64,000 nt of DNA from Physcia stellaris. Taxonomy: Eukaryota; Ascomycota; Lecanoromycetes; Caliciales; Physciaceae. Location of the stretch: NCBI GenBank assembly GCA_018902385.1, contig JABSSW010000003.1:868001-932000 (forward strand), given 5' to 3'. The position numbers and the translations under genes are program-made. Shown piece after piece: positions 23,702-63,812 of the stretch (position 1 is the stretch's first letter; every line of letters starts with the position of its first letter). The notes beneath the pieces are model-generated. The model did not search any database and was not told the origin of the DNA. It saw only the letters and a list, made by a program, of their open reading frames with translations.

Positions 23702-23845
23702 TGTAGAACTAGATGGCCAATCAGGGGCCGCCAAGAGCTTAGTAACTAGTGCGCACTCCAATGACATTAGATGCTAGAAACCATGTAAATTAACACTTCA
23801 TAAAACAACATGCAATCAATGACTTATCTATTCAGAAGTTTTACA
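23702..23845 (+). repeat. E0 left LTR, 144 bp
   Basis: TG...CA ends, and a direct copy of 63669-63812. It follows target duplication ATGCG. Confidence 0.95.
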
Positions 23846-24524
23846 GTTATGAGTTCGAATCACGCTTAATTGTTGCATTCAATACGTGATCTACTTGATT
23901 ATCAATATTTTCAGCATTCGATTGCTTCGACAGATTAACACGAAAAATCAAAACATCGCGAAAACATTTCTGTGTTTACATTTTTCTAAAACAACAATCA
24001 AAAATTTCTTTCTATTTATTCGTCCGTTCAGCACGATGACGAATACGAAACGAAAACTCAAATTAAATTTTTTCAAAAATTGAAACGCGTGACTTTCGAT
24101 CGTACGAGTCAAAATCACAAAATATTCGATTTGAAATCTCATCGATTCATTCAACGATACTAAATCAATAAAGAAAATTGAATTTTTAAAATTCAATTTT
24201 GACACACAACAAAGTGCGAATTTCAGCGAAAAACATGCTCGATACAAAATAACGACATCGAAATACAAAAAGAAATTTCAAAACTGAAAAAAGCAAAAAA
24301 ATTTCATGACAAAAATAATCGATCACATTTACGATACAACAACGATTACAAATTTCAATTTTATTCAAATCGTTGAAATTCATTCATGAATCGTTTTTCG
24401 CGTTCTCAAAGCACGTTTTGCATTCATCGATTCGACTAAAAGTTTGAAATTGAAACAAAAATACAATCGTTTGATCAAAAATTCATTCAATCGTCAAAAC
24501 ATCGATGTTTGATTAAACGACTAT

Positions 24525-26489
24525 TTGAAAATGTTGATTTTCGTTAAACAAACGAAAATTGCTGAAATCATCGATAACAAACGAGTTTATCGTGACTTTT
24601 TACACGCAATCGACAAAATCGCATTTATTTTCGTTGAAATACAATTATTTCAGTTAGACATTGTAACGAATCACGAAATTCAACTTTTCATTTTTATCGA
24701 AACTTTTCGACATCACATGCGCATGAAAAAAATTCGAAAAAAAAAAAAAACGATATTCAATTCGACATTCGTTATTGACGAATGCAATCACACAAATCAT
24801 CGAAATCATTTTGAAATTTCGTCATTTCGAAATCAAAATCAATTTCGAAATTTTTGCATTTGCGAAAAAAAACATTTTTACGACGATTGTTTTTATCTCA
24901 ACGAGAAAATACGCTCAGATGATTTCAAACTGAAATCAGAAATCGTGACTAAAATAAACGAAACGAAAAAAAATTCAAAAAAAAGAAAACAAATAGAACA
25001 AAACATCAAGCGAATTGACGAAAAACGTCAAAAAAAAAACGATAATAAAAGCACAAAAATCGAAATAAAATCTTTCGTCGTCATTCACGTCAATGTCATA
25101 AAATCGTTTACAAGCGACTCGTTTTCGTCAAATTATTTTTTTCGTTCGTCATGATTTATGAATCACGATTTCGACATTCACGTGATCAACAACACAATGA
25201 AACAACGCTTTCAAAAAAAACGAAATTGCACAAACGAATCGAAAATTATGTTCGACATGAAATCATTTTTTATTTTGACATATGATCGAATGCGTATCAA
25301 CGTCGATACGTTCACGAAAAAAAAATCAATAAAATTTTTAAACGTCAATTACGTATCAGATTTCATGATCAATATCGTCGCGAAAAACATTTTCGCAAAC
25401 AAAAAATTGCACTTTGATACAATTCATGAACATTTGCATAAAAACGATGCATCGATCGTTTTCGTGTCACGAATAAAAACACATTACGTTTTCGAAAATA
25501 ATAAATTTGAAAAAATGAACGTTTTCGCAATCATCGTGCGACAAAAATTTATTTTGAAATGACATCAGTTTTTCGCTCATGCAAATAATGACGTCATACA
25601 ACATTTACAAAAAACAATTGAAAAAATGAAATTCATCAACAAAAATAAAATGTCACTAACTAACAAATGCGAAAAATGTGTTTTTTTCAAAGCACATCGA
25701 ATTGTATTCAAATTTTCTGTAAAATCAGAAATTTCGAACAAGTCGTTTTATCGTATTACATACGATTTCATCGATATGACAACGATCTTGAACAAACACA
25801 AATGAATATCACACATGACATGTTTCGAAACAAACTTTCACATGATATACACGCATGAAAACAAAAAACAAATTACGAAAATATTTATTCGAATCATTCA
25901 CATCATCGAAATCAAATACAACGACAAGATAATATTTGTACGTTTTGACGACGAACGCGCGCTAAACATTGTTTGAAATGATTATTGTGCATTCAAAAAC
26001 ATTACACATGAACTTTCGATCGTTGATATTTCAACACAAAACGATCACAACGAACGATTAAATGACATACTGTTGATCAAATCACGAACAATGAAACTCG
26101 AAACAGATTTATTTGTTTATTTATGATTTTGAATCAATGAAATCGTTGATTACATCATGAATCGTACATTTTTCAAAAAACATGAATGAAAAACATCGTT
26201 CGAAATGATTATCGACAAAAAATCGAATTTTGCTCACATCGTTCAATATGAAGCAAAAGCATATTTTCTGAATAAAAATATTTCGAAAAAGAAAAAAATG
26301 AAAATCAAAACACACATCGATTTTCTTGTAAAATATGACAGCATCAACATCTTTTTAATTTGAATTTTTAGTCAACGAAAAATTATACGCACACGTGATG
26401 TCACATTCAACGAAAATTTACGTTATCGTTCTAACGAAATAGATTTAATTCAACTCGTCAACGAGCTCTTTTTGACTAACGATACACTT
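24525..26489 (+). pseudogene. E0 Copia gag-protease-integrase remnants
   Basis: A gag part with a CxC...H...C knuckle-like segment (FCICEKKHFYDDCFYLN) lies at about 24,860-24,905. A Copia protease-like region (HVINNTMKQRF, NVNYVSDFM) follows at 25,158-25,560. Integrase remnants run to about 26,490 (KCEKCVFFKAHRIV; then KAYFLNKNISKKKKMK and IDFLVKYDS, the region after the Copia integrase core). Assignment rests on these short matches. The region is broken many times and is a fossil. Confidence 0.8.
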
Positions 26490-26494
26490 GATAT

Positions 26495-26708
26495 TGTGAG
26501 GTGCTATGCAGAGGTATGAACTAACTACATAACTACACGAGGATATCGAAGTGGGAAACTAACTACTGGGGCCTGGCAGGGCATATGTAGGAGGTTTGGT
26601 CATAGCGGGATCCGGGCCCGGATCCCGGTGTGATAAGATAAGGGTGTTAGCCCTAGTGACTGGCCAGGTGTTGGCCCCAGGTGTTGGAACCGGTGCACGC
26701 TCGTCACA
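26495..26708 (-). repeat. TR-GAG-like element, LTR (3' in its own orientation)
   Basis: A direct copy of 32508-32721, 214 bp each, with two transitions between them. It contains a 22-bp perfect palindrome at 26606-26627 centred on GGGCCC. Confidence 0.95.
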
Positions 26709-26870
26709 TTATCCCCCGTTCCCTTCCAGCTTCGCCCCGAAGCGATTAACTCATTGGTCCTTCTCCTCCCATCGGTCGGCAGGATACGTGGTCTTGGCGG
26801 CTTGTTCGTAGGTGTGTAAAGTCCATAGCAGACGCGACAGCCGTGGAGACGTACAAGGATTTGAGGTGAA

Positions 26871-26934
26871 GACGGCGGAGACGGCGGAGATGGCGGAGAC
26901 GGCGGAGACGGCGGAGATGGCGGAGACGGCGGAG
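26871..26934. repeat. 9-bp minisatellite
   Basis: About seven tandem copies of GACGGCGGA with one-base variants lie just inside the LTR. Read on the minus strand it would encode Pro-Pro-Ser repeats. Confidence 0.85.
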
Positions 26935-27689
26935 TAGGCTCCTGCAGGCCTAGACGGCCTTGTATTTGCAAGGACCGTTGGATGTCAGAGATACCTGGCG
27001 TTTAGTATGGCGAAACGGCCGTTTTCTCGGAGCATGGAGGCCTCCCAGGAAGCTTGCGTTTTGAATCGAGATGTGAAAAGGATTATTAAGGCAGTTGAGA
27101 TATGCAGGGATATCGTGTTCTTTTGTATGGCAGAAGCGCTCTCTCTCCTGTAAATCCCAGAGCATGCATGCAATGTTCGTTAGTGATTAGTACAAATACA
27201 GAGTAGGAAAGATGGAAACGTCCTCGAAGTTCTGTTCGAAATCTGACTGCGAGGCATGGGCCATGGTACCCGTGAGTAAGTGGTATGATAGGCCATTTGA
27301 AAGTACCTGAAACCCGAAAACCTTGAAGCAGGCTGTTCGAGGCGAGGAGATTGATCAATGCTCTGAGCCTCTGATCAGGATAGCGATTCGCTTCTATCAG
27401 GCTTTCGATATGGGTAGAGGTACCTGTATTCGGTGCCGGATGCAGGCCTATGCGAGGTATCTGAAGCCGGGGTCATTGCAGCTGATAAAAGAACTGATCT
27501 GCAGTCAACTCGCTGAGGATGCAGACGGTGACGTAAATGATGAAGTAGACAGACGATCGAAAGCTTGCTTCTCCAGAGTCTAGTACGTAGTTTAGAGTGT
27601 AAAGGATCGGAGACTCGAGCTTTTGGATGTAATGAAGGCATTAATGTAGGCGTTTCGCATTAATGTAGGCGTTGGATCCTTGCAACATC

Positions 27690-28144
27690 AGGCCGGTTAT
27701 ACGATGAGACGAGCAGTTTGGTCATGTTAGTAGAACCATCGCAACAACGATTAACGCATTGATACTTCTGCATATGCGAGAGTTGGTGTGTACATTGCAT
27801 TCAATAGAACATCAGCGTAATGGACCTCCTGAAAGGTGGCCAATTCATACAATCTTTCGCGAGTAGCTCCGGCGACAGTTAGTAAGCAAACAATTGAGAA
27901 CCTTCGAAAATCTCAGATCGGTTATATCATGAGACAAGCAGTTTCACCACATTAGTAGAATCAGCGTAACAACGATTAACGCATCGATACTTGGGCGCAT
28001 GCGATAGTCGATGTGTACGATCCATTTAGTAGAACGTGTATGTAAGAAACCTTCTGGAAGGTAGGTAGTTTTTGCGAGTCTTATAGGTAACTCCGGTGAG
28101 ATAATAAGGCATTGATGTAGGCGTTTACCCCCCGTCTCTTCTCA
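27690..28144. repeat. Imperfect 225-bp tandem duplication in the element's non-coding part
   Basis: Two diverged copies share words in the same order: GGTTATA, ATGAGAC, AGCAGTTT, ATTAGTAGAA, CAACGATTAACGCAT and CTGGAAGGTAGG-like ends. The copies start near 27,695 and 27,920. This is downstream non-coding DNA of the element in its minus orientation. Confidence 0.65.
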
Positions 28145-28169
28145 GCTTCGTCCCGAAGCGACGAATGCG

Positions 28170-28997
28170 CTACTCGTATTGAATGGCACGGCCAATGGCC
28201 GAAATAGCTTGTCCGTAGGCGTTAATGCAGCCCATTGCTGCAGCTGACATGGCCGAAACGATTGCGAGAGCAAGGAGTAAGGCCGGAAGAAGGCGGAGAA
28301 ATATGGAAATGAAGAAGACGGCTTCTGCAGCCCTATTCGGATTCGAAGGCTTCAAATGGCAGGAGACATCTGGCAATTTGCATGGTAAATCGGCCGATTT
28401 CTCAGGCAAGTTTTCGCTGGAGGCAGTGCGGATTGGTTCCGCAGGCATATGCTGATTTAAACTCTTCGGTTTTGAGCTTTTCGAGTCCCGACTAATCGAC
28501 GACTTCTGATTGGCTGTAAGCTTAAAGTAGGAAGCAATTCGCATTTGGCCTGGGGGGATGCCTCGAGAAAACACGCCCATTTGGCCTTCGAGCAGGCTCT
28601 TTTGGCTGTAGAGTAGGTTCTTTCTCCTGAGATTCCCACTGAACATCCTGGACAGATTTTCGATAGTGAGGTAAGGCTTTTTCGAAGGAGTTGAGCATGG
28701 CCGACCAGGTTGACGAAGGCCAAAGCCCTGCGGAGAGCGATAGCGATTTTGGTGCTGTCTTGGGCCATATGGTCTAGATTTCCCAGCAAACATGCGGTGC
28801 AAATCATCCATAGTCAGATAGGACTTCTGGATGTGAGGTTCTTGGTGTTTTCGAACTGGTGTATGCGGTGGAGTAGGGGGAGCAGTGAGCGGGCAATTGA
28901 CGACTGCGCTCTCCATCGGCTTCGGGCTGATTCTGTGTGTCGAAATCGAGAGATTCGAGCATTTCGATGATAGGGATTGCGAAGCTATTTCCGCCAA
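28170..28997 (-). CDS. TR-GAG-like element ORF2: PIP-box-like and repeated TIxxLxxMF motifs, hydrophobic tail
   Basis: An open frame of 275 residues overlaps the end of the preceding ORF. The motif [YP][YL]xTxxxLxxMFxG occurs twice (SYLTMDDLHRMFAG and PYLTIENLSRMFSG). At residues 151-158 QMRIASYF matches the PCNA-interacting-peptide pattern Qxx[ILMV]xx[FY][FY]. It is followed by TANQ, a Ser/Lys-rich linker, MPAEPIR and PEKSA. The same string of features, in the same order, is found in the ORF at 41814-43304. Residues from about 225 form a long hydrophobic stretch (FFISIFLRLLPALLLALAIV), a probable membrane segment. No known family is recognised. Function is inferred only from the short motifs. 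Confidence 0.7.
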   Translation of the reverse strand: MAEIASQSLSSKCSNLSISTHRISPKPMESAVVNCPLTAPPTPPHTPVRKHQEPHIQKSYLTMDDLHRMFAGKSRPYGPRQHQNRYRSPQGFGLRQPGRPCSTPSKKPYLTIENLSRMFSGNLRRKNLLYSQKSLLEGQMGVFSRGIPPGQMRIASYFKLTANQKSSISRDSKSSKPKSLNQHMPAEPIRTASSENLPEKSADLPCKLPDVSCHLKPSNPNRAAEAVFFISIFLRLLPALLLALAIVSAMSAAAMGCINAYGQAISAIGRAIQYE

Positions 28998-31369
28998 AGG
29001 TATCTGACTTCGTGGTGTTGCAGGGGGGGTAGTCGGAGCGAGCGGAGCAGGCGGGCATTTAGTTGCTGATTTCTCCTTGGTTTTACATGTAGGGGCTCGG
29101 AGATCAGAGCTTTTGGCCGGCTTTCGAGCATGATGTTGACGTATATGCTCGTGAAGCTTGTTATTGGAGTTGAAGCTCTGCTTGCAACGTCTGCAAATTC
29201 GAGCGCAAGCAATCTGTTGAATCGGGGTCTCTCCACAAATTTTGGTGCAGGTTCGAGTGCTGATAATTGGAGAGCTGCCCGTTCAGCTTCTATTCTTACG
29301 CGAATGCGAGCAGCCTGAGCTCGGATACCCGCGATCGAACTTTTGGTGGCCTCTGCAGCTCCTGCAGTTTCTGTAGGAGGAACTGATGCACTCTCCGCAT
29401 ACTCGGACGTGATTTCGGGTGTCGTAATCAGGAGATTCGAACGTTTCGACGAATCGGTTTGCGAAGTTGTTTCCGTATCTTTCTGAGCAGGGGTTTGCAA
29501 TTCTTGCGAAGCAGGCAGAGCCGTCACATCCTTGGCTGCTGACTTCTCCTCTGCTCTGCATACTGGTTTGGATGCATGAGATCGGAGAGGCGAGCTGATG
29601 GCAGTCTTCTGAATAGAGATTCCTTGATGTTCTGATTCGAACGTTTGAGGAGGTGCCGACTCCGGCGGAGCAGAAGAAGACTGAGTTGACCTATTCTCCT
29701 CTGGCTCTGATACAGTTTCTGGTGTATGAGATGGGAGATGTGAGTCCTCCAGTGAAGCCACTGCTTCGGAGGTCATTGCAGACTCAGATTTCTGCTTTGG
29801 TGTTGCAATAGAAGCTTGCGGCTCAGGCGAAGCGGGCGAACCATCGAAAACTGACTTTTTCTCGTCTTGCAAAGGTGTTTGCGTATTTGGAGGAAACGCC
29901 TTCGTTAAAGCTATACTGAAATCGTGCAAGGAGGTGAAATTCGATTGATTTTCGAACCAGGTGTCGGCAGGACCACAAAGAATTACTTCCATCCATTCGA
30001 GCAATTCTGACTCACAGCACAGGTGCTGACATTGCTGAAGATGTTGAATGAAGGTGGTGGCCTGATTGAATCGTCTTTTTTCTAGGTCCTGATGAGGTCG
30101 ACTTGGATTGAAGGTACCAAGGCTCGCAGGTAGGGGTAATGTGTCCGGTTGTACGGCAAGCGAAGCAGAAGGCGATGAGTTGACTGTTGATATCTCCACC
30201 GATTCGCATGCTGATTTAGCTGCATCGATCGAGAGATGAGAACTGACGGCAGGCCTCTTCGCATGCTGCTCGCGTTTGTGCTGACGAAGCATCTTCTTGG
30301 AGTTGAACGTTTGTTTGCAGTGCCGGCACGTCGCTGATTTCTCTGCTGATTTTGGCTCAGTTTCCAGTGCAGGAAGCGAGAGATCCGAGCGTTCTGGTGG
30401 AGGGACTGGTCTGGATGTTGCTGCAGGCTCGGATATTGAGTTCTGAGGTTCCGCAGGTGGAGCAGGTGGTACGTGCGTGGCGGATGACTTCTCCTCGTCT
30501 TCGCACATCGAGTTGAGTGTATTGATCGAGAGAAGAGAGCTCTCGATAGGCTTTCTTCGATGTTGTACGCGTTTATGCTCGCGAAGCGATTCCTTGGAGT
30601 TGAAAGTCTCGCCGCAATGCCTACACGTTGTTGATCTCTCTGTTGATTCTGGTATAACATCGAGTGTACTTAATTGGAGATCCGAACTACTTGGTAAAGC
30701 ACGTCGTACAGACGTTTTCGGAAATGCTTTCGTTATAGCCCTACTGAAGCGTTTCAACGAAGTGAACTCAGACTGAGTTTTGAACCAATCAGACGCATGA
30801 CCACATAAGCACTTCGGCAACAGGTTCAGCAAGTCTGACTTGCGATACAGACGCTGGCATTGCTCAAGATGTTGCAGAAAAGTCGCGACGTTGCTATACA
30901 GACCGAACTCAGGCCTGTCAGATGCCAATGATGGGTCGAAGATACCGAGATCTTGAAGCGTTGGTGTTTGTTTTGCTGTTTCTATGCCATTTAACTCAGC
31001 TCGCTCTGCGGCTTTTCGAGCTTTACGCTTTGCTCTCTTCTGGGTCATTGCTTCCAACTCTCGTTGTTCTTGCGAAGGAAATGCTTTCGTTAGAGCCATA
31101 CCAAAGCGAGGCAGGGAGTTGAAATGCGTCTGCTTCTTGTACCATTCCCAAGCAGGACCATTGAGGGCCCAAAGCATGTATTCAAGCAGTTTTGTTCTTC
31201 GGTATCGATACAACCCCTGACAGTGCTCAAGGTTTCGTAGAAAACTCGTGACATCATTGAATTGTCTGGTTTCCGAATCAGGGCATGGCAGGCTCGGATT
31301 GAAGAGGCCGATATCTCGGGAAGGATCGAAAGGACCGAAATTCGAAGGCAATGGGGGTATCGAGGACAT
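28985..31369 (-). CDS. TR-GAG-like element ORF1: three gag-like repeats and C2H2 fingers
   Basis: An open frame of 794 residues contains three copies of a gag-like module at about residues 20-98, 141-218 and 417-494. Each runs GxFNPS...F..ATxFLQHLEQCQxLYR..LL......GxAxxWFxxQxxFxSLxxFxxALTKAFP. The pattern of a charged start, a helix, then a conserved G-A-x-x-W recalls capsid regions of fungal Ty3/Gypsy gag. Two C2H2 fingers (CRHCGETFNSKESLREHKR at 249-270 and CRHCKQTFNSKKMLRQHKR at 348-369) lie between modules 2 and 3. A third finger-like stretch is visible around 29,130-29,215. The remainder is Ser/Pro/Glu-rich. It probably encodes a structural particle protein; no enzyme domain is seen. Confidence 0.72.
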   Translation of the reverse strand: MSSIPPLPSNFGPFDPSRDIGLFNPSLPCPDSETRQFNDVTSFLRNLEHCQGLYRYRRTKLLEYMLWALNGPAWEWYKKQTHFNSLPRFGMALTKAFPSQEQRELEAMTQKRAKRKARKAAERAELNGIETAKQTPTLQDLGIFDPSLASDRPEFGLYSNVATFLQHLEQCQRLYRKSDLLNLLPKCLCGHASDWFKTQSEFTSLKRFSRAITKAFPKTSVRRALPSSSDLQLSTLDVIPESTERSTTCRHCGETFNSKESLREHKRVQHRRKPIESSLLSINTLNSMCEDEEKSSATHVPPAPPAEPQNSISEPAATSRPVPPPERSDLSLPALETEPKSAEKSATCRHCKQTFNSKKMLRQHKREQHAKRPAVSSHLSIDAAKSACESVEISTVNSSPSASLAVQPDTLPLPASLGTFNPSRPHQDLEKRRFNQATTFIQHLQQCQHLCCESELLEWMEVILCGPADTWFENQSNFTSLHDFSIALTKAFPPNTQTPLQDEKKSVFDGSPASPEPQASIATPKQKSESAMTSEAVASLEDSHLPSHTPETVSEPEENRSTQSSSAPPESAPPQTFESEHQGISIQKTAISSPLRSHASKPVCRAEEKSAAKDVTALPASQELQTPAQKDTETTSQTDSSKRSNLLITTPEITSEYAESASVPPTETAGAAEATKSSIAGIRAQAARIRVRIEAERAALQLSALEPAPKFVERPRFNRLLALEFADVASRASTPITSFTSIYVNIMLESRPKALISEPLHVKPRRNQQLNARLLRSLRLPPLQHHEVRYLWRK

Positions 31370-32507
31370 CGCAGAAGTCTGAGAAGAACGTTGATTGACT
31401 AGGTAATTGGGTGTAGTTCTGCCGAATTCTCAGGCACAGTGGATAGATTCAATACCGAATGCTGATGCAAGGTTTCGCTAGAAGGTTCTTGTCGATTCTG
31501 GTAGAAGGATATTGAGTTTATCCCTGTAGCAAGAGAGAGATGCCGGTTTGCTATGGCCAACAAGTATGTTTTATGGCCAACTCTCAAGTAAGGAGGATGG
31601 CTTCAATGCTGGTTGTTTGAAGAGGTATTGTGAAAGGATTCGAAGGTTTCTAGACGAGATATCGAGTTGACCGAGTGAGTAGGAGAGGACGGTCAATTCG
31701 CTAAGAATTTGATAAGGATTCTGAAAGATTCTCGAAGCAGGTAGATGGTTCGAATTCGGTCGAAGGTTTCTGATGCAATGGCCGAGGTTCTGGTGCAGTC
31801 ACTGCTTCGAAGGTCTGATATTGGATTCACCGAGGGTATTGGAGAGTGAGGTGGATTGGTGAGGGTCAATAGGTATGTTTTTGAACTGCTTCTCGACCAA
31901 GGGAGATGGTTACAATACCAGATGCGGATGTAGAGGTAAATGGCTTCCTAACGGATTACTGAATCGTTTCCTGGCTCGATACTGGAGCTACCGAGTTGAT
32001 GTGAGAGGACAATCGATTTGGTAAGTAAGTTGGTAGGATTTCGAAAGGTTCTCGGGTGAGGAGGATGATTCGAGTATTGGGGGTCAAAGACCTGGTTCCT
32101 GACTCAACGGCGGAGCTTCTGGTCCGGCCCTTGCTCAGATATGGTGTTTTCTTGGTGGCCTAGGCCTGGTTTGGTGACTTAACCGGGTCACCTCCGTGAC
32201 ACTTTGTCAGTCGAGTGGAGCGGACCTGAATCAACGCTCGGGGGGGGGTTTGTTTGTGAACCTAGACTATCGCGTAGATCCGTCTGTTCTGGGTGCCAAT
32301 TGGCGCAGACGAACGAGCCTATTATGCTCCGTTTCTGCTTACATCCACAACGAGCTCACTGTTGTTTGCTCCGATGCTCCCTTCGGATGACCGAGCGATA
32401 CGAGCCTATTATGCTCCACTACCACAGGGCTTTATTGAAACGGGATGCTTTGTTTATTTAATGCTCGCGTACCTTAAACGAGCATGGCGTGAGCGACTTC
32501 GATATAA
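31370..32507 (-). other. TR-GAG-like element leader region with diverged internal repeats
   Basis: Non-coding DNA lies between the upstream LTR and ORF1. Blocks around 31,660-31,800 and 31,985-32,125 share ordered words (ACCGAGT, GAGAGGAC, GGTTCTGG/GCTTCTGG and similar), suggesting an old duplication. CGAGCCTATTATGCTCC occurs twice, near 32,317 and 32,401. Confidence 0.55.
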
Positions 32508-32721
32508 TGTGAGGTGCTATGCAGAGGTATGAACTAACTACATAACTACACGAGGATATCGAAGTGGGAAACTAACTACTGGGGCCTGGCAGGGCATATG
32601 TAGGAGGTTTGGTCATAGCGGGATCCGAGCCCGAATCCCGGTGTGATAAGATAAGGGTGTTAGCCCTAGTGACTGGCCAGGTGTTGGCCCCAGGTGTTGG
32701 AACCGGTGCACGCTCGTCACA
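32508..32721 (-). repeat. TR-GAG-like element, LTR (5' in its own orientation)
   Basis: A direct copy of 26495-26708, followed by target duplication GATAT at 32722-32726. Confidence 0.95.
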
Positions 32722-33214
32722 GATATATCGAAAAGCGATTTCACGAAAATAATAAACATCGAATCAAACAACGACGAAAATGTATGAAAATTAACATTTA
32801 CAAAATTTATTATCGATCGCGATGCAAAGAAATCTCACAAACAAACAATTGAAAACGATTCTGAATCAAAATATTTATTCTCATTTGTTTCATTTTCGTC
32901 AAGAAATGAAAACACGTCAAATACGTTTGATTTTTCGTCATTTGTCGTTACAGAAAATTTCTCGTCATTTGTCGTTGCAAAAACAATAAAGAAATTATTT
33001 TCGTCTGCATCGTCGTTGAAAAAAAAAAAATCGAAACATTGAACGAAAACAACGATTGACGAAATCAATATTCAGTTCGAAAAATTCATTCGTATTCGCA
33101 AATCAAATTCGTTTCGAAACTTCAATCATTACATTATTTTGAAAAACGCATTCGCAAAAAAAATGCGTTCATTTTACGAAACATTCATGATTTCATTAAC
33201 GATAAAAACGAAAT

Positions 33215-33408
33215 TGTTATGACGCAAAATCAGATTAGATGATTTAAACTTAAATCGAATATTTTTGCAAAACATTTGACAAGAATTTTGTCATCATTTT
33301 ATACTAAATGAGTGATGATCAGACAACTGATTCGCAATTACTGTACATAAATTGACATTTTGTTTTTCATAGTTTCTAAATCAATCAATACACATTTCAC
33401 GCATAACA
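33215..33408 (+). repeat. E1 left LTR, 194 bp
   Basis: TG...CA ends; closest partner is 61772-61965 (both share the central word TTTTTGCAAAACATTTG). Inverted 7-bp tips TGTTATG and CATAACA. Confidence 0.93.
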
Positions 33409-37157: not shown

Positions 37158-37352
37158 AATGATAATCAGTTTACTGTGCGAATTTCGTCTGAAAAATGAA
37201 TGTCAATTGAGTTCAAATTCGACGCGAAAATTGAAACAACAAAAATGTATTCGCTTGATTTCGCAAACAGAAAGTTTGTAAACGAAATTTTTGACAAGTT
37301 ACATGCACAAAAACGTATGAAATACATTATTCAATTTACGTCGCACGATTAT

Positions 37353-37546
37353 TGTTATAACACAAAATCAAATTAAATAATATGAATTTAGATCAAATAT
37401 TCTGACATGACTTTTGACAAGAATTCTGTCGTCATTTCATACTAAATGAGTGATGATCAAACAACTGATTCGCAATTATTGTACATAAATTGACATTTTG
37501 TCGTTCATAATTTCTAAATGAATCAATTCACACTTTACGCATAACA
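37353..37546 (+). repeat. E2 left LTR, 194 bp
   Basis: Pairs with 40122-40315. Both carry the central word TTCTGACATGA, which the E1 LTRs lack. Confidence 0.93.
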
Positions 37547-39960: not shown

Positions 39961-40121
39961 TCATTGAACAATACGAATTCAATCATTCGCAAAACTTTGA
40001 TGATCGCAACGGCAAACGAAAAGCGAAAAAAAAATAAATTGATGCATGATATGATTACGCATGATAATAAAACATGAAATTCAATGAAAACATTGATTTT
40101 TCTTTTCTTTGATTGACAAAT

Positions 40122-41552: not shown

Positions 41553-41553
41553 A

Positions 41554-44295: not shown

Positions 44296-44300
44296 ATTGT

Positions 44301-50319: not shown

Positions 50320-50412
50320 AAATATTCGATGCGAAAATCACGATCACAGTGATTTTTCAAATCAACGATTTTCGATGCGAAAATCACGACGACAATGATT
50401 TTTCAAGTCAAA
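50320..50412. repeat. Short tandem pair with internal inverted symmetry in E4
   Basis: The phrase TTCGATGCGAAAATCACGA with a following GATTTTTCAA occurs twice about 46 bp apart. Within each unit AAAATCAC and GTGATTTT (or a close variant) face each other, so each could form a hairpin. Confidence 0.55.
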
Positions 50413-50420
50413 AAATATAC

Positions 50421-50564
50421 TGATACGAACACAAATAATTGCTTGATGATTGTTAATTCGCATTAAATTGACTAGCTGTATTTAAGAAAATTTCTACTTT
50501 AGTTAGCAATTCAATTCACTTATCATCGATTGATACTGATTTTTAGTAATTGACTATTTTAGCA
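50421..50564 (+). repeat. E3 left LTR, 144 bp
   Basis: Direct copy of 60068-60211. Its equal length to the E0 LTR is coincidental; the sequences differ. Confidence 0.93.
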
Positions 50565-50743
50565 AATGATAACATCATAAATTCGATTTGTATTACGTAT
50601 TTGACATCATTGATTGTCGATCGAATACGTCGTTTTACATCAAATCGAATTTGTCAACAATCAAACGCATTGTTTCAGCAATTTCATCAACTGATATCAA
50701 CTCTAAATCGTCGACTTAATTGTCGTGAAAAATCAAATTACTC

Positions 50744-53700: not shown

Positions 53701-54439
53701 CAATCACAGTTTGAATGACAAACTAGTCAAAATCTGCGCGAATATCGACTGTACTATGTTTTTGATTGACAAAAAATATCTATTGAAAATTAAACTCGAT
53801 GTCACAATTCACAAAACAAAGCAATCGATTCGAATACATGACATCGACGACAAATTACATGACAATTCAGAATATACAAAATTGAATTTTTACGTTGTCG
53901 ATACGTTATCAGATCAATTATCAACTATAATTCACTTTCGTCGTGAAATTCATTTAGTGAATGATTTGAGAATTCACGTTTTGTTCGATGTCGATATTTT
54001 AAAATTCGAGCAAATAATATTTGACATGAACAAACGTATTATCATTTTTCTCGTTTGTAGCAATTTGACAATTTTCATGAAATTGATTTTCAAAAATCAA
54101 CGCATTGTGCGAACAATAAAATCAATTAACAAAATCACTATATTTTCGCATATTTGTCTAACTGTATTTGTCAAAATACGCGATCAAAATCTGTCAGCAA
54201 ATAAAAATTACAACTTCGAATCTAAACAGAATTTTCAGCAATTAAAATTCGAAAATGATTTTTTCAATCACATTATCGATGCTCATCTCGTCGTCGTACA
54301 AATACGAAACGTTATCAATAAATCAATAATTTTGTCAAAACATGCAAAGATTGACATGCTACGCGACTTCGAAAAAAAAAATTGTTATTATGTCTTTTTT
54401 GACGATCGACATTTAGCAATCGTTTCGTCACGTAATTGA
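50744..54439 (+). pseudogene. E3 gag and protease remnants
   Basis: Gln/Asn-rich gag stretches are followed by a finger CRMCKIDFYFNNKLYRHVRIC (about 53,481-53,543) and a retropepsin-like start (KICANIDCTMFLIDKKYLLK, 53,726 on). Layout and finger match E1, though the sequences are well diverged. Fossil. Confidence 0.75.
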
Positions 54440-55140
54440 ACGAAAACGTTACGTAATGTGATCATGATAAATTTAATCGACGTTTTCGTTGATTTTACTA
54501 CGTTTAACATTTTTTCGATTATCATTTCTATGCAAGTCAATTCGTCAACTAATTCAATATTTGATGTATCGATATTCGAAATTATTGTGTCATTTATTTC
54601 GTTGAAAATCGTCATGTCAAACGAAATCATCGTTTTTGACGATTCGTCTGTTTACAATCGATTTTTCACGATAGCGAAAATCTATTTCGAAATCTGACGT
54701 GACATCGACGACACGATCAACGTGCTCGAAAAACAATGAATGTTTATATTTATTTTATTTGACGTTAAATCGAAAATCAACAAAATGTATTCATTTAATT
54801 CGAAAAATAAAAAAGTAATCGACAAAAAGTTCGATCGATTACATAAAAAAAACAAAATGACGTGAACTAGTCAATTTATTTCGTACGATTATTCAGTTTT
54901 CGTAATATGACGTATTGTCAACGAACAACGCAAAAATCGCGTTGTAATAAATATTCGTGAATTAAATAAAATTTCGATGTTCGACGTTTATTTCATGTCG
55001 TTACAATCAAACATTTTGTCAGCAATTATCGATTGTTCGTACATATCGATGATGAATTGTGTCGATTTCTTTCATCAATAATTAATACGAATGATGAATA
55101 AACACAAATTGATTGTGATCAATCATCGAAACAACGAACA

Positions 55141-57960
55141 ATGAAACGTAATTGTCATGAATTATCGCAATTTTTTGTTTACGTTCAACAACAAATCGAT
55201 TCGATTTTACGAAAATATCGACATTTTGCTAAAACGTATGTAAACGACATAATAGTATTTTCGAATTCGTTAAAGAAACATTTACGACATTTGAATCAAA
55301 TTTTCGTTTTTTTCAAACGTATGAACATAATTTTCAAAATTAGCAAAATTTTTTTTGATTATTTTATCATATCACTGCTAAATCAACGAGTCGATAGTTT
55401 GAGATTGACTATCGCGACGAATAAATTTGAGATTATTTTCGCTTTAATTTTCTTTCAAACTTTTAAACAGTTGAAAATTTATTTAAACAAAATCGAATGA
55501 TTGCGTCAATACGTATCATACTATGCTCAAAAAACGTTGTCATTACAAAAACGTAAAACTCGTTTGTTACGTCATGCATTTAACAAAAAACGATTTCGTC
55601 AACAACATAATCGACGTATTTCAGTCGATGATTCGTCGTCGATCGAGATAAACGCTTTTAATCAATTACAAAGCGTTTTTAATCGATCAACGTTTCTGAT
55701 TCATTTCGACAAAATTAAAATTTTGTATATCGACGTGAACGTCAGCAAAAAGCGCGATTTTGACATTATGATTTATCACGTTAAATTTAAAAACGAACAG
55801 AAAATGATTGTTATCAACATTTCGTTCAAGCGAACGAACGTCGAATTCATTATGTTTTTAAACAAAATACTATCGTCAGCAGAATTTCGTTATTGATCAA
55901 CGAAACTGAAAATGACATCACTAATATGATTTGTTCGTAAATTTCGTTTGATGATCATGAACAATCAACATTCAATTGTCATTTACATCGATCACGTCGC
56001 AAATTCGATTATTGTCAATCAAATTAAATTGACATTCAGCAATGTGAATAAATTGAATTTCAAATTAATAAAAGTCAACATTTATTTTTTTCAATTTCGT
56101 TTTCGAATTTTTCATAAAGTTGAAAAATCTAATATCGTATCAAACGTTTTAAATCGATTTTCAATCGTACGTCATTTCAATTCAGATACAAAAATCGATA
56201 ATTTTGATTTGAAAATTTATCATTTTCACATCGATAAATCAGATTTCAATGAAAACTCGATACGAATTACGTTAATCGAAATGTCATCGAATTTTCGCAA
56301 GAAACTCATCATCGAATATCAAAAAAACGTTAATTGAAAAATCATTTTCGATTTGTTGAAACGTTTTGTCAACGACGACGTTAAAAATCGATTATCAAAC
56401 AAAAAATCGACGATTATCGAAAAAATGTCAAATGCGAAATCATTCACGATCATTTTCACGTCGACATTTTTTAACGAAAACGAAATCACAAAAATCGTCA
56501 TTTTTGTGTCGTTTACAACGTTCGTTTCGTCGTCGAATAAAGTCACGATGTCAAATAAAAAATCATTTTCGAATTCAACATATTTGATTTTTAAAATCGA
56601 TTTTCAATTTATCGACGATTTTATTTATTATGTAAAAAACGATCAATCTAAACTATGCATATCGGAAAATAGTATACACGACGTGTTCAAATTAGCACAT
56701 GACGACAATTTTCATGTCGATCATCATCGAGTTTACGATCGATTAAAAACAATTTACGTACGACGATTTTTCAAACGATTAATCAATTACATTCGTCATT
56801 GTTTTTCGTGTCAGTTGAATCAAACTAAACGACATAAATTTTATGAAAAATTAACATCGATAAGTATTTTCAACATGTTTTATCACACGATATCGATTGA
56901 TTTTGTATTGATTTTATTTAAACAAAATCACGAATTCGACTGTTTCATGTTCGTTATTGACAAATTCATTCGAAAAACATTATTGATTCAAAAAAAAAAC
57001 ACATGATCAATCGACGAATGAACAAACGTTTTGATCGATCGACTGTTGTTGTTGACAAATTGAAATATTTCAACAGAAATCATTTTCGATCGAAATCGAA
57101 AATTCTGTTTCGATTTTTGACGAGTCATGTTCAAACGTTTAAGCATTAATTTATTCATGAACACGATTTATTATTCACAAACGAACGATCAATCGAAACG
57201 TACAAATCAAACAATGAAAATTGCGTTTCGATTTTTTATTATCGTCAATTTCAATATAAATTGAATGAACGCGTTGTCAATTTTGCAATTCAATTTGAAC
57301 AACAATGTACATGCAATCATCGAAAAATTTTTCAATCAAATCGTTATCGATTTTCAATTCAAAAAAATTATGATCGCGATAATCGTGTCATTTGTTTTAC
57401 GACAATCGTCAAACACGATTATTTCAATCGCTAAATCGAAATTCGAAAAAAATCGTTTTGTTTTTTAAAAGAAAATTGACGAAATCATCGTCTTCGCGAC
57501 AGCAAAAATTAAAATTTTTTATGACAAACGTCATCAACATTTGAAATTTAATTTCGAAAATAAAACGTATTTTCGTTTGCATCACGAATATTTTTTCTCG
57601 TTTCAAATCAATGCTAAACTGTCTAATCAAAAAATCGAGTCGTTTTTGATAAAACGCAAAATAAAAAAGTTTGTTTACGAACTGAATTTGTCGTTCAAAT
57701 GACAAATTCATTTAGTCATATTCATCATGCAATTGAAATCGACGTCAAAAAACGTCGATTTTTATAATCGATTTCGTTCGAATCATTTCGACGTCGTCGA
57801 GATAAAAAACACATTTAACATTTTTTGAAAAAAGTTTTACGAGATAAAAAAGTTGATGAAAGAAAGAAATCGAAAATACGACAAAATCAAAATAGTGAAA
57901 TATTTGATAAAATGATTAGATTATGAATTTGAATTTGATGAATGAAAATCATTGTCAGTT
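55141..57960 (+). pseudogene. E3 reverse transcriptase, RNase H, integrase and chromodomain remnants
   Basis: Reverse transcriptase (FAKTYVNDIIVFSNSLKKHL), RNase H (FLIHFDKIKILYIDVNVSKK), integrase zinc-binding (HDDNFHVDHHRVYDRL, HCFSCQLNQTKRHKFYEKL) and core (FYHTISIDFVLILF), then a chromodomain-like stretch (YEIKKLMKERNRKYDKIKIV). Fossil, many breaks. Confidence 0.85.
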
Positions 57961-59223
57961 TTAACGAATTTCATGACATTGATGAAAAATTACGAAAAAT
58001 TCAATTTTCAATCAATCACATCAATTTCAAACACGATTCGCGTTATCGATTTTATATCATCGATTTTTAACAATTCAAAACGCAAACGAAATAAACTCAG
58101 CAAAATTATCGTCGAAAATCAACAAAAGCGCAAAAAAAATCGATTCAAAAAAATCAACGCATTTTGAATAAATGCGTACGTTGATTTCGTCAACGAATAA
58201 ATTTTATCATCATCGTGATTTAAATATTACTAAGCAATTTCGCTCAATATTTTAGCGTTTCGTTTAATAAACATTGTCGCGTCGTTAATCGAATATCGCG
58301 AATTTTCATTTTGAATTTTCATTTTGAATTCTCATTTCGAATTATCATTTTTATTTTTTATTTTGATTTTGCTCGTCGCTAAAACTGATTTATCGTTATT
58401 CAAATATGATTACATTCAATTTTCAACATCGTCAAATGCATTTTTTAATTAGTTTTAATTGAAACACGTCAATCGTTCTCGAAATTGCAAAAATGTTTCA
58501 CGATTGATTTGTACATCAAACATTTTTCGAATACGATTTTTATAATGTGCGTTCATTCAGTAAAAATTCAATTTGATTGAATGCATTGTCAAAAAAAATA
58601 ATATTTTTCGACGATCTTTTTTGAATCGTGAAAAACAAATACGACATTTTCGACAAAATCAAAAAATAACGTTTTTCGACTGATTTTGTTAGCAAAGAAA
58701 AAATTCATGATAATCGTTCGCATAAAAAAAAAATCGTCAAATACAATGACGACGCAAAAACGTGATATTATCGTCAAACGTTTACTCAAAACGACGACTC
58801 ATATATTTTGTGAAAAAATGAAAACGAAATGACATATGATAATTTATCGAGAAATCAGCGTGATATCATAGCAAAATTGTCGATCGCAATGCAAAATAAC
58901 AATGATTTTATCGTTGTTGAATTCAACGATGCATTAATCATAAATTTTGACAACACGTTTGATTTCGACTCAATCAATTTTGTCAATTTCAATATTGTTT
59001 TTGCTATCGTCAATAACAGCAAAACAAAACAAACATTTTCAATCGTCAATAACAACAAAATCAAGTCGATATTTTCAATCGTCGCTAACAAAAACGACGA
59101 CGACGATGAAAAAATGTCAATCAGCAAACTCAACAAAATTCAAAAAAAAAAAAAATCAAAAAATTTGCAAACAATGCAATCAAACGACGCAAAAAAACAA
59201 AACTATTAATTCGTCGAAACAAA

Positions 59224-59886
59224 TTGATGAATGAGAAAATTCTTGAAAACGAAATTCTGATAAAGAAATCGACAAACAATCAAAAAAAATCGAAAAAATC
59301 GAAAAAATTTGAAAACGACGAGAACGTTGATAACGCGCAAATCAACAAAAAGATAATATTCGAAAAAAACATGAAATCAATCGACATTGACAAAGCAATT
59401 GACAAAAATATCAAAATTGATTTCATCAAAACGTTCAAATCGAAAAAAAATGAAAATGACGACGAACTGTTCACTGATATTCAATTGAGCAAATTTCGAT
59501 ATCATGATTTTTTGCTCAACGAAAAACTAAAAAACGTCGAAACTTTTTTGAATTTCGCACGAAAATTCGACAATCAAATTTTTGAACTATTTCAACGTAT
59601 CGAGATCATTCTAACAGATTTCGATGAATGTACGATGTCAATTGTTGAAAAAATCGCAATCGACGAATTTATCGAAACGTATCGAATTTGTCGAAATCAA
59701 AAAACGAAAATGAAAATTACATTGATCAACAAACGTTCTGATTTAATCAAATTGATAATTCAACATATCGACTCAATCGTCAAAAATGTTGATCGCAATT
59801 TTCTAAACGTTTATTACGTCGTCGTTTGCGAAAAACGTTTTCGATCGAACATTAACATCGAACACGATATTTTCAAAGAATACTGA
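59224..59886 (+). CDS. E3 extra 3' ORF of unknown function (fossil)
   Basis: A 220-residue open frame lies downstream of the chromodomain and upstream of the right LTR, a place that usually holds only a short untranslated region in Gypsy elements. It is Lys/Asn/Asp-rich at the start, with a more globular second half (RYHDFLLNEKLKNVETFLNF, ELFQRIEIILTDFDECTM, CRNQKTKMKI). No family is recognised. An adjacent Asn/Ser-rich frame lies at 58829-59209. Composition bias from AT enrichment makes any reading uncertain. Confidence 0.35.
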   Translation: MMNEKILENEILIKKSTNNQKKSKKSKKFENDENVDNAQINKKIIFEKNMKSIDIDKAIDKNIKIDFIKTFKSKKNENDDELFTDIQLSKFRYHDFLLNEKLKNVETFLNFARKFDNQIFELFQRIEIILTDFDECTMSIVEKIAIDEFIETYRICRNQKTKMKITLINKRSDLIKLIIQHIDSIVKNVDRNFLNVYYVVVCEKRFRSNINIEHDIFKEY

Positions 59887-60067
59887 ACAAAAGTTTTAAA
59901 ACTATGAATGATCAAAGCGTTGACGTTGAAACTAGCGAAAACTATGACAAAAAAATCACGAAAAGTTAAAGCGCTGAACTATGACGTTTAACAATGAATA
60001 TGAAACACAAACAAAATGAACATAAAACATCAACGTGAACGCTGAACTTTTTCTCGTTGCGAAATGT

Positions 60068-60211
60068 TGATACGAGCACAGATAATTGCTTGATGATTGC
60101 TAATTCGCATTAAACTGACTAGCTGTATTTAAGAAAATTTCTATTTTAGTTAGCAATTCAATTCACTTATCATCGATTGATACTGATTTTTAATAGCTGA
60201 TTACTTTAACA
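60068..60211 (+). repeat. E3 right LTR, 144 bp
   Basis: Pairs with 50421-50564. Followed by target duplication TATAC. Confidence 0.93.
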
Positions 60212-60296
60212 TATACAGATTTAGAAATTTTTGTTACAAAACAGATGAAAAAATTTTGATCATCTCAAAAAATTTCGATGCTAAAAAAAAAACGCA

Positions 60297-60591
60297 TGTA
60301 AAACATTCAAAATTCAAATCGACATAAAATATGATCGAATTTCGATAAGATCGAAATATGCATCATGATCACATGCAAAGCAAACATCGAATTCGAAAAA
60401 ATGTTGTTTGCATTTTTTTGTACAACAACAAGCAATAAGTCGAGTGATTTGCAATTGAAATTCTTTATTTTCTTTATTCGTACATTTGTATATAGCGAGA
60501 AAATAGTGACTAGAATTTCTGATTTTTTAGAAATTAGTCTAATTATCAATCAAAAGCTATACATTTTTGATGTTACATTTCGTATTTTACA
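60297..60591 (+). repeat. E4 right LTR, 295 bp
   Basis: Pairs with 44301-44612. Followed by target duplication ATTGT. Confidence 0.9.
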
Positions 60592-60596
60592 ATTGT

Positions 60597-61692
60597 CATT
60601 GATTTCATTTTAATTATGTTCGACGAAATGATCACTATTATGTTCGCAATTTGTAAACATTCTCGTCGAGTCTTATTGATTTTCGACAAAAACATTTATG
60701 AAACGAAAAAATGAATCAACGCATTATTGAACAGATTATTAATCGTCGATTGAAAAATGCTTGAAACTATAATTTTCGATCGTGATTCAAAATTCATGTC
60801 GAATTTCTGACAAATGTTCTTCATCAAATTAAACACGAAATTGCTAATTTCAGTGACATATCATTCGCAAACGAACGATTCGTCAAAACGAATCAATCAA
60901 ATTGTTGAAATTGTTATCAGATATTTCGTCATCGAATTTTCGAACATCGATTACATTTTAGTTTTTTTTGCAATTCAAATTCAATTAAACAACACGTTTA
61001 ACATCGTTACAAATTTATCACTCAATGAAATTATATACGAATTCAAAATCAAAAACGCGATATCGAGTTTGATCGAATTTAACACAACAAATGTACAAAA
61101 TTTGTCAGCTCAACGCATGAAATATCAGCGAAAAATTGTCGATATCACGAATTTTGCAACTGTCAAAATCAAAATATATTATGATTCACGTCATATTTCT
61201 ATTCGACTAAAACAAAATGAAAAAATTTATTTACAATTCAACAAAAATTACAAGCTGTTTGACAAATTAAATTCGAAATTATCTCAACAACGTTGCGAAT
61301 CATTTCGAATTTTTGAACGCATCGAACGTTTTGCGTATCGATTGAAATTGTTATCAACATGACGAATTCATTTCGTTGTGTTTATTGCACAGTTCGAATC
61401 AACATTTGTCGAAATTGATTCTTACAATCGTTCGCGTTTTCATTATTTTGACTTCATTGAAATCGAAAGCGATACGAATCAGTACAAGTCTTATGAGATT
61501 GAGAAATTAATCGAAAAACGAACTAGAAAGTACAACAAAACAGATGAATCGATTATGAATCGAAATATGACGAATGACGATTCATTTTCGAATTACAGAA
61601 CTTTCAAAACTTTATTGAACAATACGAACTCAATCATTCGCATAACTCTGATGATCGCAACGACAAAAAAAAACGAGAAAAAAATAAATTGA
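60597..61692 (+). pseudogene. E1 integrase core and chromodomain remnants
   Basis: The integrase core resumes after E4 (TYHSQTNDSSKRINQIVEIV, NYKLFDKLNSKLSQQRCESF), then a chromodomain start (SYEIEKLIEKRTRKYN) near 61,490-61,540. It closely matches E2 39,141-39,896. Fossil. Confidence 0.82.
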
Positions 61693-61771
61693 TCGTGATA
61701 TGATTACGCATAATAATAGAACATGAAACTCAATAAAAACATTGAAATTTTTTTTTTTTTGATTGACAAAT

Positions 61772-61965
61772 TGTTATGACGCAAAATCAAATTAAATGAT
61801 CTGAATTTAAGTCGAATATTTTTGCAAAACATTTGACAAAAGTTCTGTCATCATTTCATACTAAATGAATGATGATCAGACAACTGACTCGCAATTACTG
61901 TACATAAATTGACATTTTGTTTTTCATAATTTCTAAATCAATCAATACACACTTCACGCATAACA
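61772..61965 (+). repeat. E1 right LTR, 194 bp
   Basis: Pairs with 33215-33408. Followed by target duplication GAAAT. Confidence 0.93.
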
Positions 61966-62188
61966 GAAATCGCATCGTGACAATTTTTTCGTCGAATCAA
62001 AGTTTTATCATCAAATGCTCAAACATGCTAAAATCGTCGATTTTTTACGAGTCATTGACGTGAAAATCAAGACATTACAATCAAAGCAAATCTGAAAAAA
62101 AATATCATGAAATCATGTCAAACAAGCAAAAAAGATTTTTATATTTATCACATGAATATTCAAATACAAATTCGACAATGAGAAATAT

Positions 62189-63173
62189 TTGATAAAGCAC
62201 AAAACTAAATTGTGTGTTCGAAAAAATTTTCAACAAATCGAGCAAGATGTTTACGCAACTACATTAACTATTAAAATTTTTCGAACATTAATGATCATAA
62301 TTACAATTTTCGATTTGAGCATTCGTCAATATGACGCAATCAATGCATTCGCAAATAGCGATATCGACGAATTCATTTATTGCAAATCGTTTGACAATTG
62401 AAAAAAAACAAACAATGTGTTATTTTTTCTATTGAAAACATTATACGAATTGAAACAGTTTTCAACATTATGATATCGACATTTCTCGATCATTTTTAAC
62501 AATTTAAATCTGAAACAAATGTTCGACATCGAATGTTTATTTATGTGCGATTACATGATTTTATTTTTTCGTAAACGATATAGCAATCATGTATTATTTT
62601 CAATATTTCAAACAAATCGACGTCTTCGAAAAAAAACTTTTCGAAATTTACGAAATGAAAAACATGAACGAAATCGAATGATTTTTCAATATTCGCATTA
62701 CACGCGATAAAAAACAACAAACAACGTCATTTTGTCAGAACAGTTACATCGATAAATTCATCAATAAATTCAATATCAATATGAACAAAAAAGAATCAAA
62801 GTCATCTATAGTCAATTATATTTCGATGATAAAGAATGAAAATAATGTTATTTCACAGAAAATTCACATGTATCAGCAGAAAATTGATTCGATCAATTTC
62901 GTTGCAACAATCATTCGATCAAATGTGATCGTTGTTGCATCATTACTATCTGAATATTTTACGAATTCATTTAAACATCATGCGAAACAAACGACTCGAA
63001 CGCTAAAATATTTGACTCACATCAAATATTACGTCATTGTTTACAAAAATCAAACAAATCATGAAATCATCATTTTTTTAATCTCGTCAAATGCGTCATT
63101 CGCAAACGATTTAGACATTCGTCAAAATTCAAATGAATATTGTTTCATGTTTTTCGACGATTTCATCGATTGA
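62189..63173 (+). pseudogene. E0 Copia reverse transcriptase and RNase H remnants
   Basis: Copia reverse-transcriptase words are clear (LCVRKNFQQIEQDVYATTL, FDLSIRQYDAINAFANSDID), then MFDIECLFMCDYMILFF, and an RNase H stretch near 62,940-63,170 (TTRTLKYLTHIKYYVIVY, NASFANDLDIRQNSNEY). This right arm of E0 confirms that the two outer LTRs belong to one Copia element. Fossil. Confidence 0.85.
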
Positions 63174-63668
63174 AAAATCACAAAACAAAAAACAATCACA
63201 ATTAATTTCATCGAAATCGAATTGTTGATTATGTCAATGACGATCAACATCAAAATGTGATGAAATCGTTTTTTTGAATCAATACAAATGAACATGAAAA
63301 AATTTATTCACATTCAATGCGATAATCGTCAAATTATACGAACGTTTACTATGTCAGCGATCAAATTAATCATTAAATTACGTCATGTCGATATACATCG
63401 TCACTAATTACGTCAGAAAATGCAAAAGAACACGATCAACATTCAATGAACTTTTACAACGAATATTTTGATCGATGATTTCATCAAAATTCTATCATCT
63501 CAGAAGCAGAAAGCATTCGTGAAACTGATTGATTTAAAATTTATTTCGATATCAAAATCGAAAAAGAACAACGAATTCGATCAATCAAAAACCGAATAAG
63601 TCACATCGAAAAATGGATAAAACATCAAGAATAGAACGAAATATCAGATATTTTCTTTTAAAGAGATG

Positions 63669-63812
63669 TGTAGAACTAGATGGCCAATCAGGAACCGCCA
63701 AAAGCTTAATAACTAGTGCGCACTCCAATGACATTAGATGCTAGAAACCATGTAAATTAGCACTTCATAGAACAACATGCAATCAATGACTTACCTATCC
63801 AGAAGTCTTACA
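63669..63812 (+). repeat. E0 right LTR, 144 bp
   Basis: Direct copy of 23702-23845 with nine transitions. Followed by target duplication ATGCG at 63813-63817. Confidence 0.95.

What the first reader, a model, noticed from the sequence alone, without database searches (positions are those of the whole stretch)
23702..63812. RIP-like hypermutation that targets CpC and CpT rather than CpA
I compared four LTR pairs by eye (E0, E1, E2, E3). All of roughly 46 differences are transitions. About 42 lie at C followed by a pyrimidine (or the reverse complement), about 4 at CpA and none at CpG. The AT-rich bodies agree: CC and GG are almost absent, CT and AG are reduced, while CA, TG and CG stay common. 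The two differences between the young TR-GAG-like LTRs are also at GG. The lost acidic residues of the mariner-type transposase fit GG or AG change too. Classical Neurospora RIP prefers CpA, so this suggests an enzyme with another context preference (CpC first, then CpT).
Basis: partly seen in the sequence, partly recalled or inferred. Interest (0 to 1): 0.85.

Follow-up and report, generated by a model that had tools for sequence, protein, structure and literature searches.

The report
Fungal repeat mutator hitting CC, CT
This fungus has riddled its transposons with C-to-T mutations as in the genome defence called RIP, but almost only where the C is followed by another C or a T, nearly the reverse of the usual preference, so the standard RIP indices miss it here.

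Summary
The three AT-rich blocks keep 10 CC/GG dinucleotides in 31.5 kb where composition predicts about 1,315. Directional comparisons give C-to-T rates by 3' base. Family 1 copy L025: CpC 93%, CpT 62%, CpA 7%, CpG 5%. Four copies of another family: 92%, 75%, 6%, 3%. rDNA pseudogene against Rfam consensus: 85%, 46%, 5%, 0%. The 5' base matters little, which argues against APOBEC-like or UV signatures. A third family, not mutated, shows no bias. CpA-based indices of 127 windows RIP-positive. The genome has DIM-2 and two intact-looking RID/Masc1-type genes. Best reading: a RIP-like process with inverted preference (CpC>CpT>>CpA>=CpG; N. crassa CpA>CpT>CpG>CpC), most likely RID-driven. The enzyme, the link to sex and the homology dependence are inferred. 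Some copies over 90% identical are unmutated, so it is not exhaustive. New variant of a known kind.

The parts
23702..63812 (.). Outer LTR element E0 with nested insertions; LTRs about 145 bp, ATGCG target duplication; LTRs only lightly mutated
23846..26490 (.). AT-rich hypermutated block, 1 CC/GG left (116 expected)
26491..32721 (.). Younger GC-normal (49.5%) LTR element, LTRs 98.6% identical; reference for directional test 1
32727..41395 (.). AT-rich hypermutated block, 6 CC/GG left (390 expected)
33211..61965 (.). Inner LTR element (LTRs 33211-33408 and 61768-61965; 14 differences, 12 CpT, 2 CpA); pairing inferred from lack of transversions
37351..40318 (.). Inner LTR element (LTRs 37351-37549 and 40120-40318; 12 differences, 10 CpT, 2 CpA)
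41398..43446 (+). Younger GC-normal (53%) short LTR element (TR-GAG-like), LTRs identical but for a gap; its family is not mutated (negative control)
43450..63667 (.). AT-rich hypermutated block, 3 CC/GG left (809 expected)
50421..60214 (.). Inner LTR element (LTRs 50421-50567 and 60068-60214; 12 differences, 11 CpT, 1 transversion)

Best explanation
A repeat-directed, RIP-like mutator converts C to T (on either strand) in transposons and an rDNA pseudogene of this fungus. It reads the base 3' of the target cytosine and acts on C followed by a pyrimidine: CpC fastest, CpT about 2.0-3.4 times slower in the less saturated copies, CpA and CpG almost spared. Shown: context, direction, few other changes, saturation, both strands hit, no CC depletion in GC-normal DNA sampled, steep edges at E0. 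Inferred: that a cytosine methyltransferase of the RID/Masc1 group (one of two paralogues here) does it with an altered 3'-base preference, probably in the sexual phase as in Neurospora.
For: Directional C-to-T by 3' base: L025 CpC 152/163, CpT 128/206, CpA 13/196, CpG 10/202, 10 transversions, 6 reverse transitions; L059-L062 pooled CpC 1319/1437, CpT 1062/1419, CpA 87/1346, CpG 45/1390; rDNA against Rfam CpC 34/40, CpT 23/50, CpA 2/39, CpG 0/35. Isolated CC before A or G becomes TC in 62 of 68 cases in L025. Unmutated family: 171/1968 at CpC against 115/1837 at CpA. Two RID-type genes with PCQ and EET or EQT (triads from PMC6709928). Context by 3' base is how RIP contexts are described.
Against: No genetics or methylation data. 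Some copies over 90% identical are unmutated: L055/L056 94.9% over 3,493 bases, L043/L044 93.6% over 1,830 and L045/L046 90.4% over 1,261. Published RID-linked signatures are CpA, CpT or CpG, not CpC (PMC4352252). The heaviest copy L062 shows CpA 39/336 against CpG 16/345, a hint of weak CpA activity. Strand-run test gave nothing clear.
Confidence: 0.7

Rival explanations
1. DIM-2, not a RID-type enzyme, is the mutator: heterochromatic repeats are methylated with CpT/CpC preference and mutated in a DIM-2-dependent branch of RIP.
For: A DIM-2 gene is present (L002, E 2e-181 to 9bap). A review table lists DIM-2 methylation as all CpN contexts with CpT preference (PMC13297926 passage). A 2025 Neurospora paper says older repeats need the double knockout to abolish RIP (PMC11969663 passage).
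Against: CpC leads here, not CpT. In N. crassa testers k-mer shifts needed Rid1, not Dim2 (PMC12543289 section).
Confidence: 0.15
2. No hypermutation: slow, long-term deamination of 5-methylcytosine laid at CpC and CpT in silent repeats.
For: Would give C-to-T at the same contexts; heterochromatic AT-rich blocks fit.
Against: L060 carries 605 CpY changes in 722 sites with 22 transversions and 13 reverse transitions; ordinary decay of that extent should bring many more other changes (inference).
Confidence: 0.05
3. A cytosine deaminase unrelated to RID (AID/APOBEC or DddA-like) edits repeats.
For: C-to-T on both strands is what such an enzyme would leave.
Against: Known ones read the 5' base (recalled); here the 3' base decides. 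APOBEC_N and NAD1 profiles found nothing in the genome, though those searches had no eukaryote positive control and other deaminase families were not searched.
Confidence: 0.05
4. Ordinary CpA RIP made to look different by saturation and alignment bias.
For: Saturation does distort LTR comparisons: CpT dominates there.
Against: Direction is fixed by GC-normal relatives and rRNA consensus.
Confidence: 0.02

Closest known systems
RIP of Neurospora crassa (RID-dependent)
   Same: C-to-T on both strands of repeats, near-saturated AT-rich blocks, RID-type gene present
   Different: N. crassa order CpA>CpT>CpG>CpC (PMC5496416 passage); here CpC>CpT>>CpA>=CpG
RIP of Trichoderma reesei
   Same: RIP seen in crosses with an order differing from N. 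crassa
   Different: CpA about equal to CpG, then CpT, CpC last (PMC5496416 passage)
CpT signatures of Botrytis, Sclerotinia, Magnaporthe and some Colletotrichum families
   Same: CpT as a C-to-T site in ascomycetes with RID genes; a RID motif was proposed to explain it (PMC4352252)
Monilinia RIP (CpC-to-TpT double mutations)
   Same: CpC is mentioned as a substrate
   Different: Described with classical CpA-to-TpA and as double change to TpT (PMC8959702 passage); here isolated CC before A or G gives TC
RIP-mutated rDNA pseudogenes of ascomycetes
   Same: Displaced rDNA copies riddled with C-to-T
   Different: CpA/TpG mutated more often there (PMC5555474 passage); CpC and CpT here
CpG or TpCpG repeat mutation of basidiomycetes (Microbotryum)
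   Same: Repeat-directed C-to-T with a non-CpA context
   Different: CpG context without RID genes (PMC4352252); CpG is spared here

Membership tests
RIP | Near-exclusive C-to-T (G-to-A) transitions in repeated DNA | tested here: met
   GC-normal DNA (182 of 200 sampled 1-kb bins) keeps CC at 22-34% of C-next
RIP | CpA preference (usual, not strictly defining) | tested here: not met
   CpA 6-7% against CpC 92-93% in the clean comparisons; indices negative
RIP | Triggered by sequence duplication above a length and identity threshold | tested here: inconclusive
   signature sits in repeats, but pairs of 90-95% identity over 1.2-3.5 kb are unmutated
RIP | Acts before meiosis in the sexual cycle | not testable with these tools
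   needs crosses
RIP | Requires a RID gene | not testable with these tools
   two RID-type genes are present; requirement needs deletion
RID/Masc1 methyltransferases | C5 cytosine methylase domain (PF00145) with PCQ | tested here: met
   (L001 and L003)
RID/Masc1 methyltransferases | EQT or EET triad in motif VI instead of ENV | tested here: met
   L001 EET, L003 EQT; rule from PMC6709928
RID/Masc1 methyltransferases | Very short target recognition domain | tested here: inconclusive
DIM-2 methyltransferase | Full-length similarity to a solved fungal DNA (cytosine-5-)-methyltransferase | tested here: met
   L002, E 2e-181 to 9bap over residues 220-905 plus an N-terminal stretch; that 9bap is N. 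crassa DIM-2 is recalled
AID/APOBEC deaminase editing | 5' base decides the site | tested here: not met
   CCR becomes TC 62 of 68; CpC 82-97% for each 5' base in L025
AID/APOBEC deaminase editing | Gene of the family present | tested here: not met
   PF08210 and PF18778: no match at E 0.1; weak negative, no eukaryote positive control

The most novel reading that the evidence does not exclude
One of the two RID paralogues (or the pair) has switched from CpA to C-pyrimidine recognition, giving a RIP lineage with an inverted dinucleotide code. It would be a natural specificity mutant showing how a RIP enzyme reads its target, and a class of RIP that CpA-based surveys miss.
Probability: 0.5. Interest if true: 0.85.

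Novelty: new variant of a known kind. Interest (0 to 1): 0.78.

Why it matters
RIP is usually described as a CpA process; a 2025 survey of 1,239 genomes concluded that RIP-like defences share a CpA preference (PMC12543289). A genome where CpC, the least favoured site in N. crassa, is exhausted and CpA is spared shows that the target code can be inverted. The usual indices score RIP as absent here, so RIP-negative calls in other fungi may need another look. It also offers a comparative handle on the biochemistry of RID, for which in vitro methylase activity has not been detected (PMC13297926 passage): two paralogues with different motif-VI triads beside a changed spectrum. The coding outcome changes too: internal stops in RT matches are mostly TGA (250 of 286).

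Tried and rejected
Rejected: canonical CpA RIP; original base composition (same calls); APOBEC-type editing; UV signature, because in L025 TpC sites before A or G are little hit (TCA 9/51, TCG 3/65).

Tried without gain: strand-run test for processivity (7 of 8 copies like shuffles, L059 with somewhat fewer strand switches, 0.015 of shuffles as low). Species naming by assembly statistics found nothing usable; the 5.8S search returned one match, the mutated rDNA (39 of 2,644 candidates scored). Taxonomy therefore rests on gene content: RID plus DIM-2 points to an ascomycete. The EET triad is cited for B. cinerea and P. destructans, both Leotiomycetes as I recall, a hint and not a test. A DDE_1 search and the fetched L054, L057 and L058 were not taken further. 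DNMT5: PF00145 gave no fourth gene, but a paper calls a Dnmt5 too divergent to align, so its absence is not established. Literature searches aimed at a CpC/CpT RIP listed none that I recognised in the held open library; for most listed papers I saw the listing only, and Clutterbuck 2011 was not seen, so an earlier report cannot be excluded. No structure prediction was run.

Rows dropped: I used only printed Rfam blocks, left out LSU 454-635 (poorly conserved) and the SSU blocks from 1373 on, and counted only columns and neighbours in capitals; 6 of the counted C/G columns carried other changes. Family 1: 15 stretches by highest score from 107 matches; all 21 alignments are pooled, including GC-normal L026 and L030. 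Unmutated family: 12 stretches from 72 matches, 13 alignments. The third-searched family (L055): 4 copies of 41 matches, chosen to spread over 70-80% identity; GC-normal L056 is shown but not pooled. Searches used the best alignment per locus only.
Full report
WHERE. The window is contig C3, 868001-932000, of an unnamed 43,974,083-base, 147-contig genome, fungal by its genes (inference). The left 23.7 kb is gene-like DNA of 49% GC. From 23702 to 63812 lies an outer LTR element (E0, ATGCG on both sides) with elements nested inside. Three AT-rich blocks (28-30% GC) are interrupted by two GC-normal, evidently younger insertions, 26491-32721 and 41398-43446.

OBSERVATION. Four LTR pairs differ at 47 sites: 38 CpT, 4 CpC and 4 CpA transitions, 0 CpG, and 1 transversion. 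The AT blocks keep 10 CC/GG in 31,532 bases where composition predicts about 1,315. As a share of C's, CpT falls about twofold while CpA and CpG rise. The edge is steep: next to E0 host DNA has 11 CC/GG per 50 bases; inside, CC/GG reaches zero about 100 bases in on the left and about 220 bases in on the right. E0's own LTRs are thus only lightly mutated.

ELSEWHERE IN THE GENOME. Twenty 10-kb stretches of four large contigs give 200 1-kb bins. Nine bins of 15-29% GC have CC at 0-0.3% and CT at 2-9% of C-next. Nine bins of 30-39% GC are intermediate (CC about 4%, CT 26-27%). The 182 bins of 40% GC or more have CC at 22-34%. None of the AT-rich classes shows a CpA-type loss.

DIRECTIONAL TEST 1. 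The GC-normal element 26491-32721 was compared with 15 relatives out of 107 matches. L025 differs almost only by C-to-T: CpC 152/163, CpT 128/206, CpA 13/196, CpG 10/202, 10 transversions, 6 reverse transitions. Pooled over all 21 alignments, GC-normal L026 and L030 included: CpC 1472/2307, CpT 1403/3045, CpA 287/3040, CpG 306/2801.

DIRECTIONAL TEST 2. An intact reverse-transcriptase element (L055) was compared with four of its 41 matches: CpC 1319/1437, CpT 1062/1419, CpA 87/1346, CpG 45/1390; 21-30 transversions and 13-20 reverse transitions each. In the least mutated, L059, -ln(1-p) is 1.70 (CpC), 0.65 (CpT), 0.039 (CpA), 0.026 (CpG). The CpC:CpT ratio of these values is 2.0-3.4 in L025, L027-L029, L031, L036 and L059 and lower in saturated copies. 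In the most mutated, L062, CpA reaches 39/336 against CpG 16/345, so weak CpA activity is possible.

DIRECTIONAL TEST 3. The one 5.8S match found lies in an AT-rich rDNA pseudogene on C41. Against strongly conserved Rfam columns: CpC 34/40, CpT 23/50, CpA 2/39, CpG 0/35, 6 other changes at C/G columns, 8 changes in 305 A/T columns (blocks left out are listed under Tried and rejected). This reference is independent of transposons. Fisher p for CpC against CpA: 2e-70 for L025, 8e-14 for rDNA.

CONTEXT. In L025 an isolated CC before A or G becomes TC in 62 of 68 cases, and CpC is mutated at 82-97% for each 5' base; in five intermediate copies at 49-72%. The rule is 'C followed by a pyrimidine'. 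Both strands are hit; lightly mutated L028 is asymmetric (CpC 29/48 on one strand, 13/82 on the other). Strand-run tests gave nothing clear.

CONTROLS. The family of 41398-43446 (13 alignments) shows no such bias: A 115/1837, C 171/1968, G 181/1495, T 154/1463; two of its copies, L043 and L044, have a slight CpC excess (34/266 and 31/258). Canonical indices fail: TpA/ApT 0.40-0.44 and substrate index 1.26-1.32 in the AT blocks; 0 of 127 windows of the whole window and 0 of 39 of the largest block pass (thresholds recalled, and the stricter published ones would pass none either). Of 150 RT matches listed, 140 carry stops: 250 TGA, 33 TAA, 3 TAG.

AGAINST A SIMPLE STORY. Some near-identical copies are not mutated: L055/L056 at 94.9% over 3,493 bases, L043/L044 at 93.6% over 1,830 and L045/L046 at 90.4% over 1,261. 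The process is not exhaustive; it may be rare, recently lost or evaded. L055 and L056 differ with a modest excess at CpC and CpT (36 and 30 against 21 CpA and 18 CpG, 32 transversions).

ENZYMES. PF00145 found three genes (four matches). L002 is DIM-2-like. L001 and L003 align at 40% over 174 catalytic residues, carry PCQ, and have EET and EQT in motif VI, the published mark of Masc1/RID enzymes (PMC6709928 passages). Both look intact, with introns judged by eye. APOBEC_N and NAD1 profiles gave nothing (weak negatives). DNMT5 was not specifically searched.

MECHANISM. Most likely a RID-type enzyme with changed 3'-base reading, acting on repeats (0.70). DIM-2 is the chief rival (0.15), since a review lists CpT preference for its methylation (PMC13297926 passage). 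Slow decay of methylcytosine is disfavoured by spectra with hundreds of CpC/CpT changes beside about twenty transversions. None of this is shown genetically.

LITERATURE. Seen: PMC12543289 (outline with abstract, and the introduction, RIP-gene, k-mer and discussion sections); PMC4352252 (passages and conclusions); passages only of PMC2621366, PMC3017866, PMC7882544, PMC11969663, PMC5555474, PMC6709928, PMC8959702, PMC12550465, PMC4522978, PMC13297926, PMC5496416, PMC4014442 and PMC6180176. CpT is often reported as a second or even leading RIP site in alignments (PMC2621366, PMC7882544, PMC4352252, PMC6180176 passages). CpC as leading site was in none of the passages I saw, and searches listed no paper that I recognised as reporting it. 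Subscription papers, Clutterbuck 2011 among them, were not seen.

VERDICT. The finding is real, recurs across the genome in what was sampled, and lies outside the RIP contexts I could find in print: a new variant of a known kind, with the enzyme still to be named.

Noticed in passing
window 16778-19120: Perfect 99-bp inverted repeats (16778-16876 and 19022-19120) around a 189-aa minus-strand ORF (18454-19023) in GC-normal DNA: looks like a recent terminal-inverted-repeat transposon.
   Followed up: no
L041 (G000:C41:42000-49500): A displaced rDNA unit (18S part, 5.8S, 28S part) mutated by the same CpC/CpT process; the only 5.8S match returned for the assembly.
   Followed up: partly
L001 and L003: Two RID/Masc1-type genes with different motif-VI triads (EET and EQT) in one genome, 40% identical in the catalytic part.
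   Followed up: partly
window 41398-43446; L042-L053: A short LTR family whose copies, some over 90% identical, escape the mutation.
   Followed up: partly
L028 (G000:C13:804100-805430): Lightly mutated copy with strong strand asymmetry at CpC: 29/48 against 13/82, as if one strand had been hit.
   Followed up: no
L009 (G000:C1:900001-910000): Two adjacent 1-kb bins of only 20-21% GC, lower than the other blocks seen; perhaps repeatedly mutated or centromere-like.
   Followed up: no
window 28170-31429: Long minus-strand frames (814 aa, with three diverged copies of an about 84-base direct repeat) with C2H2-like motifs, by eye, in the young element 26491-32721.
   Followed up: no
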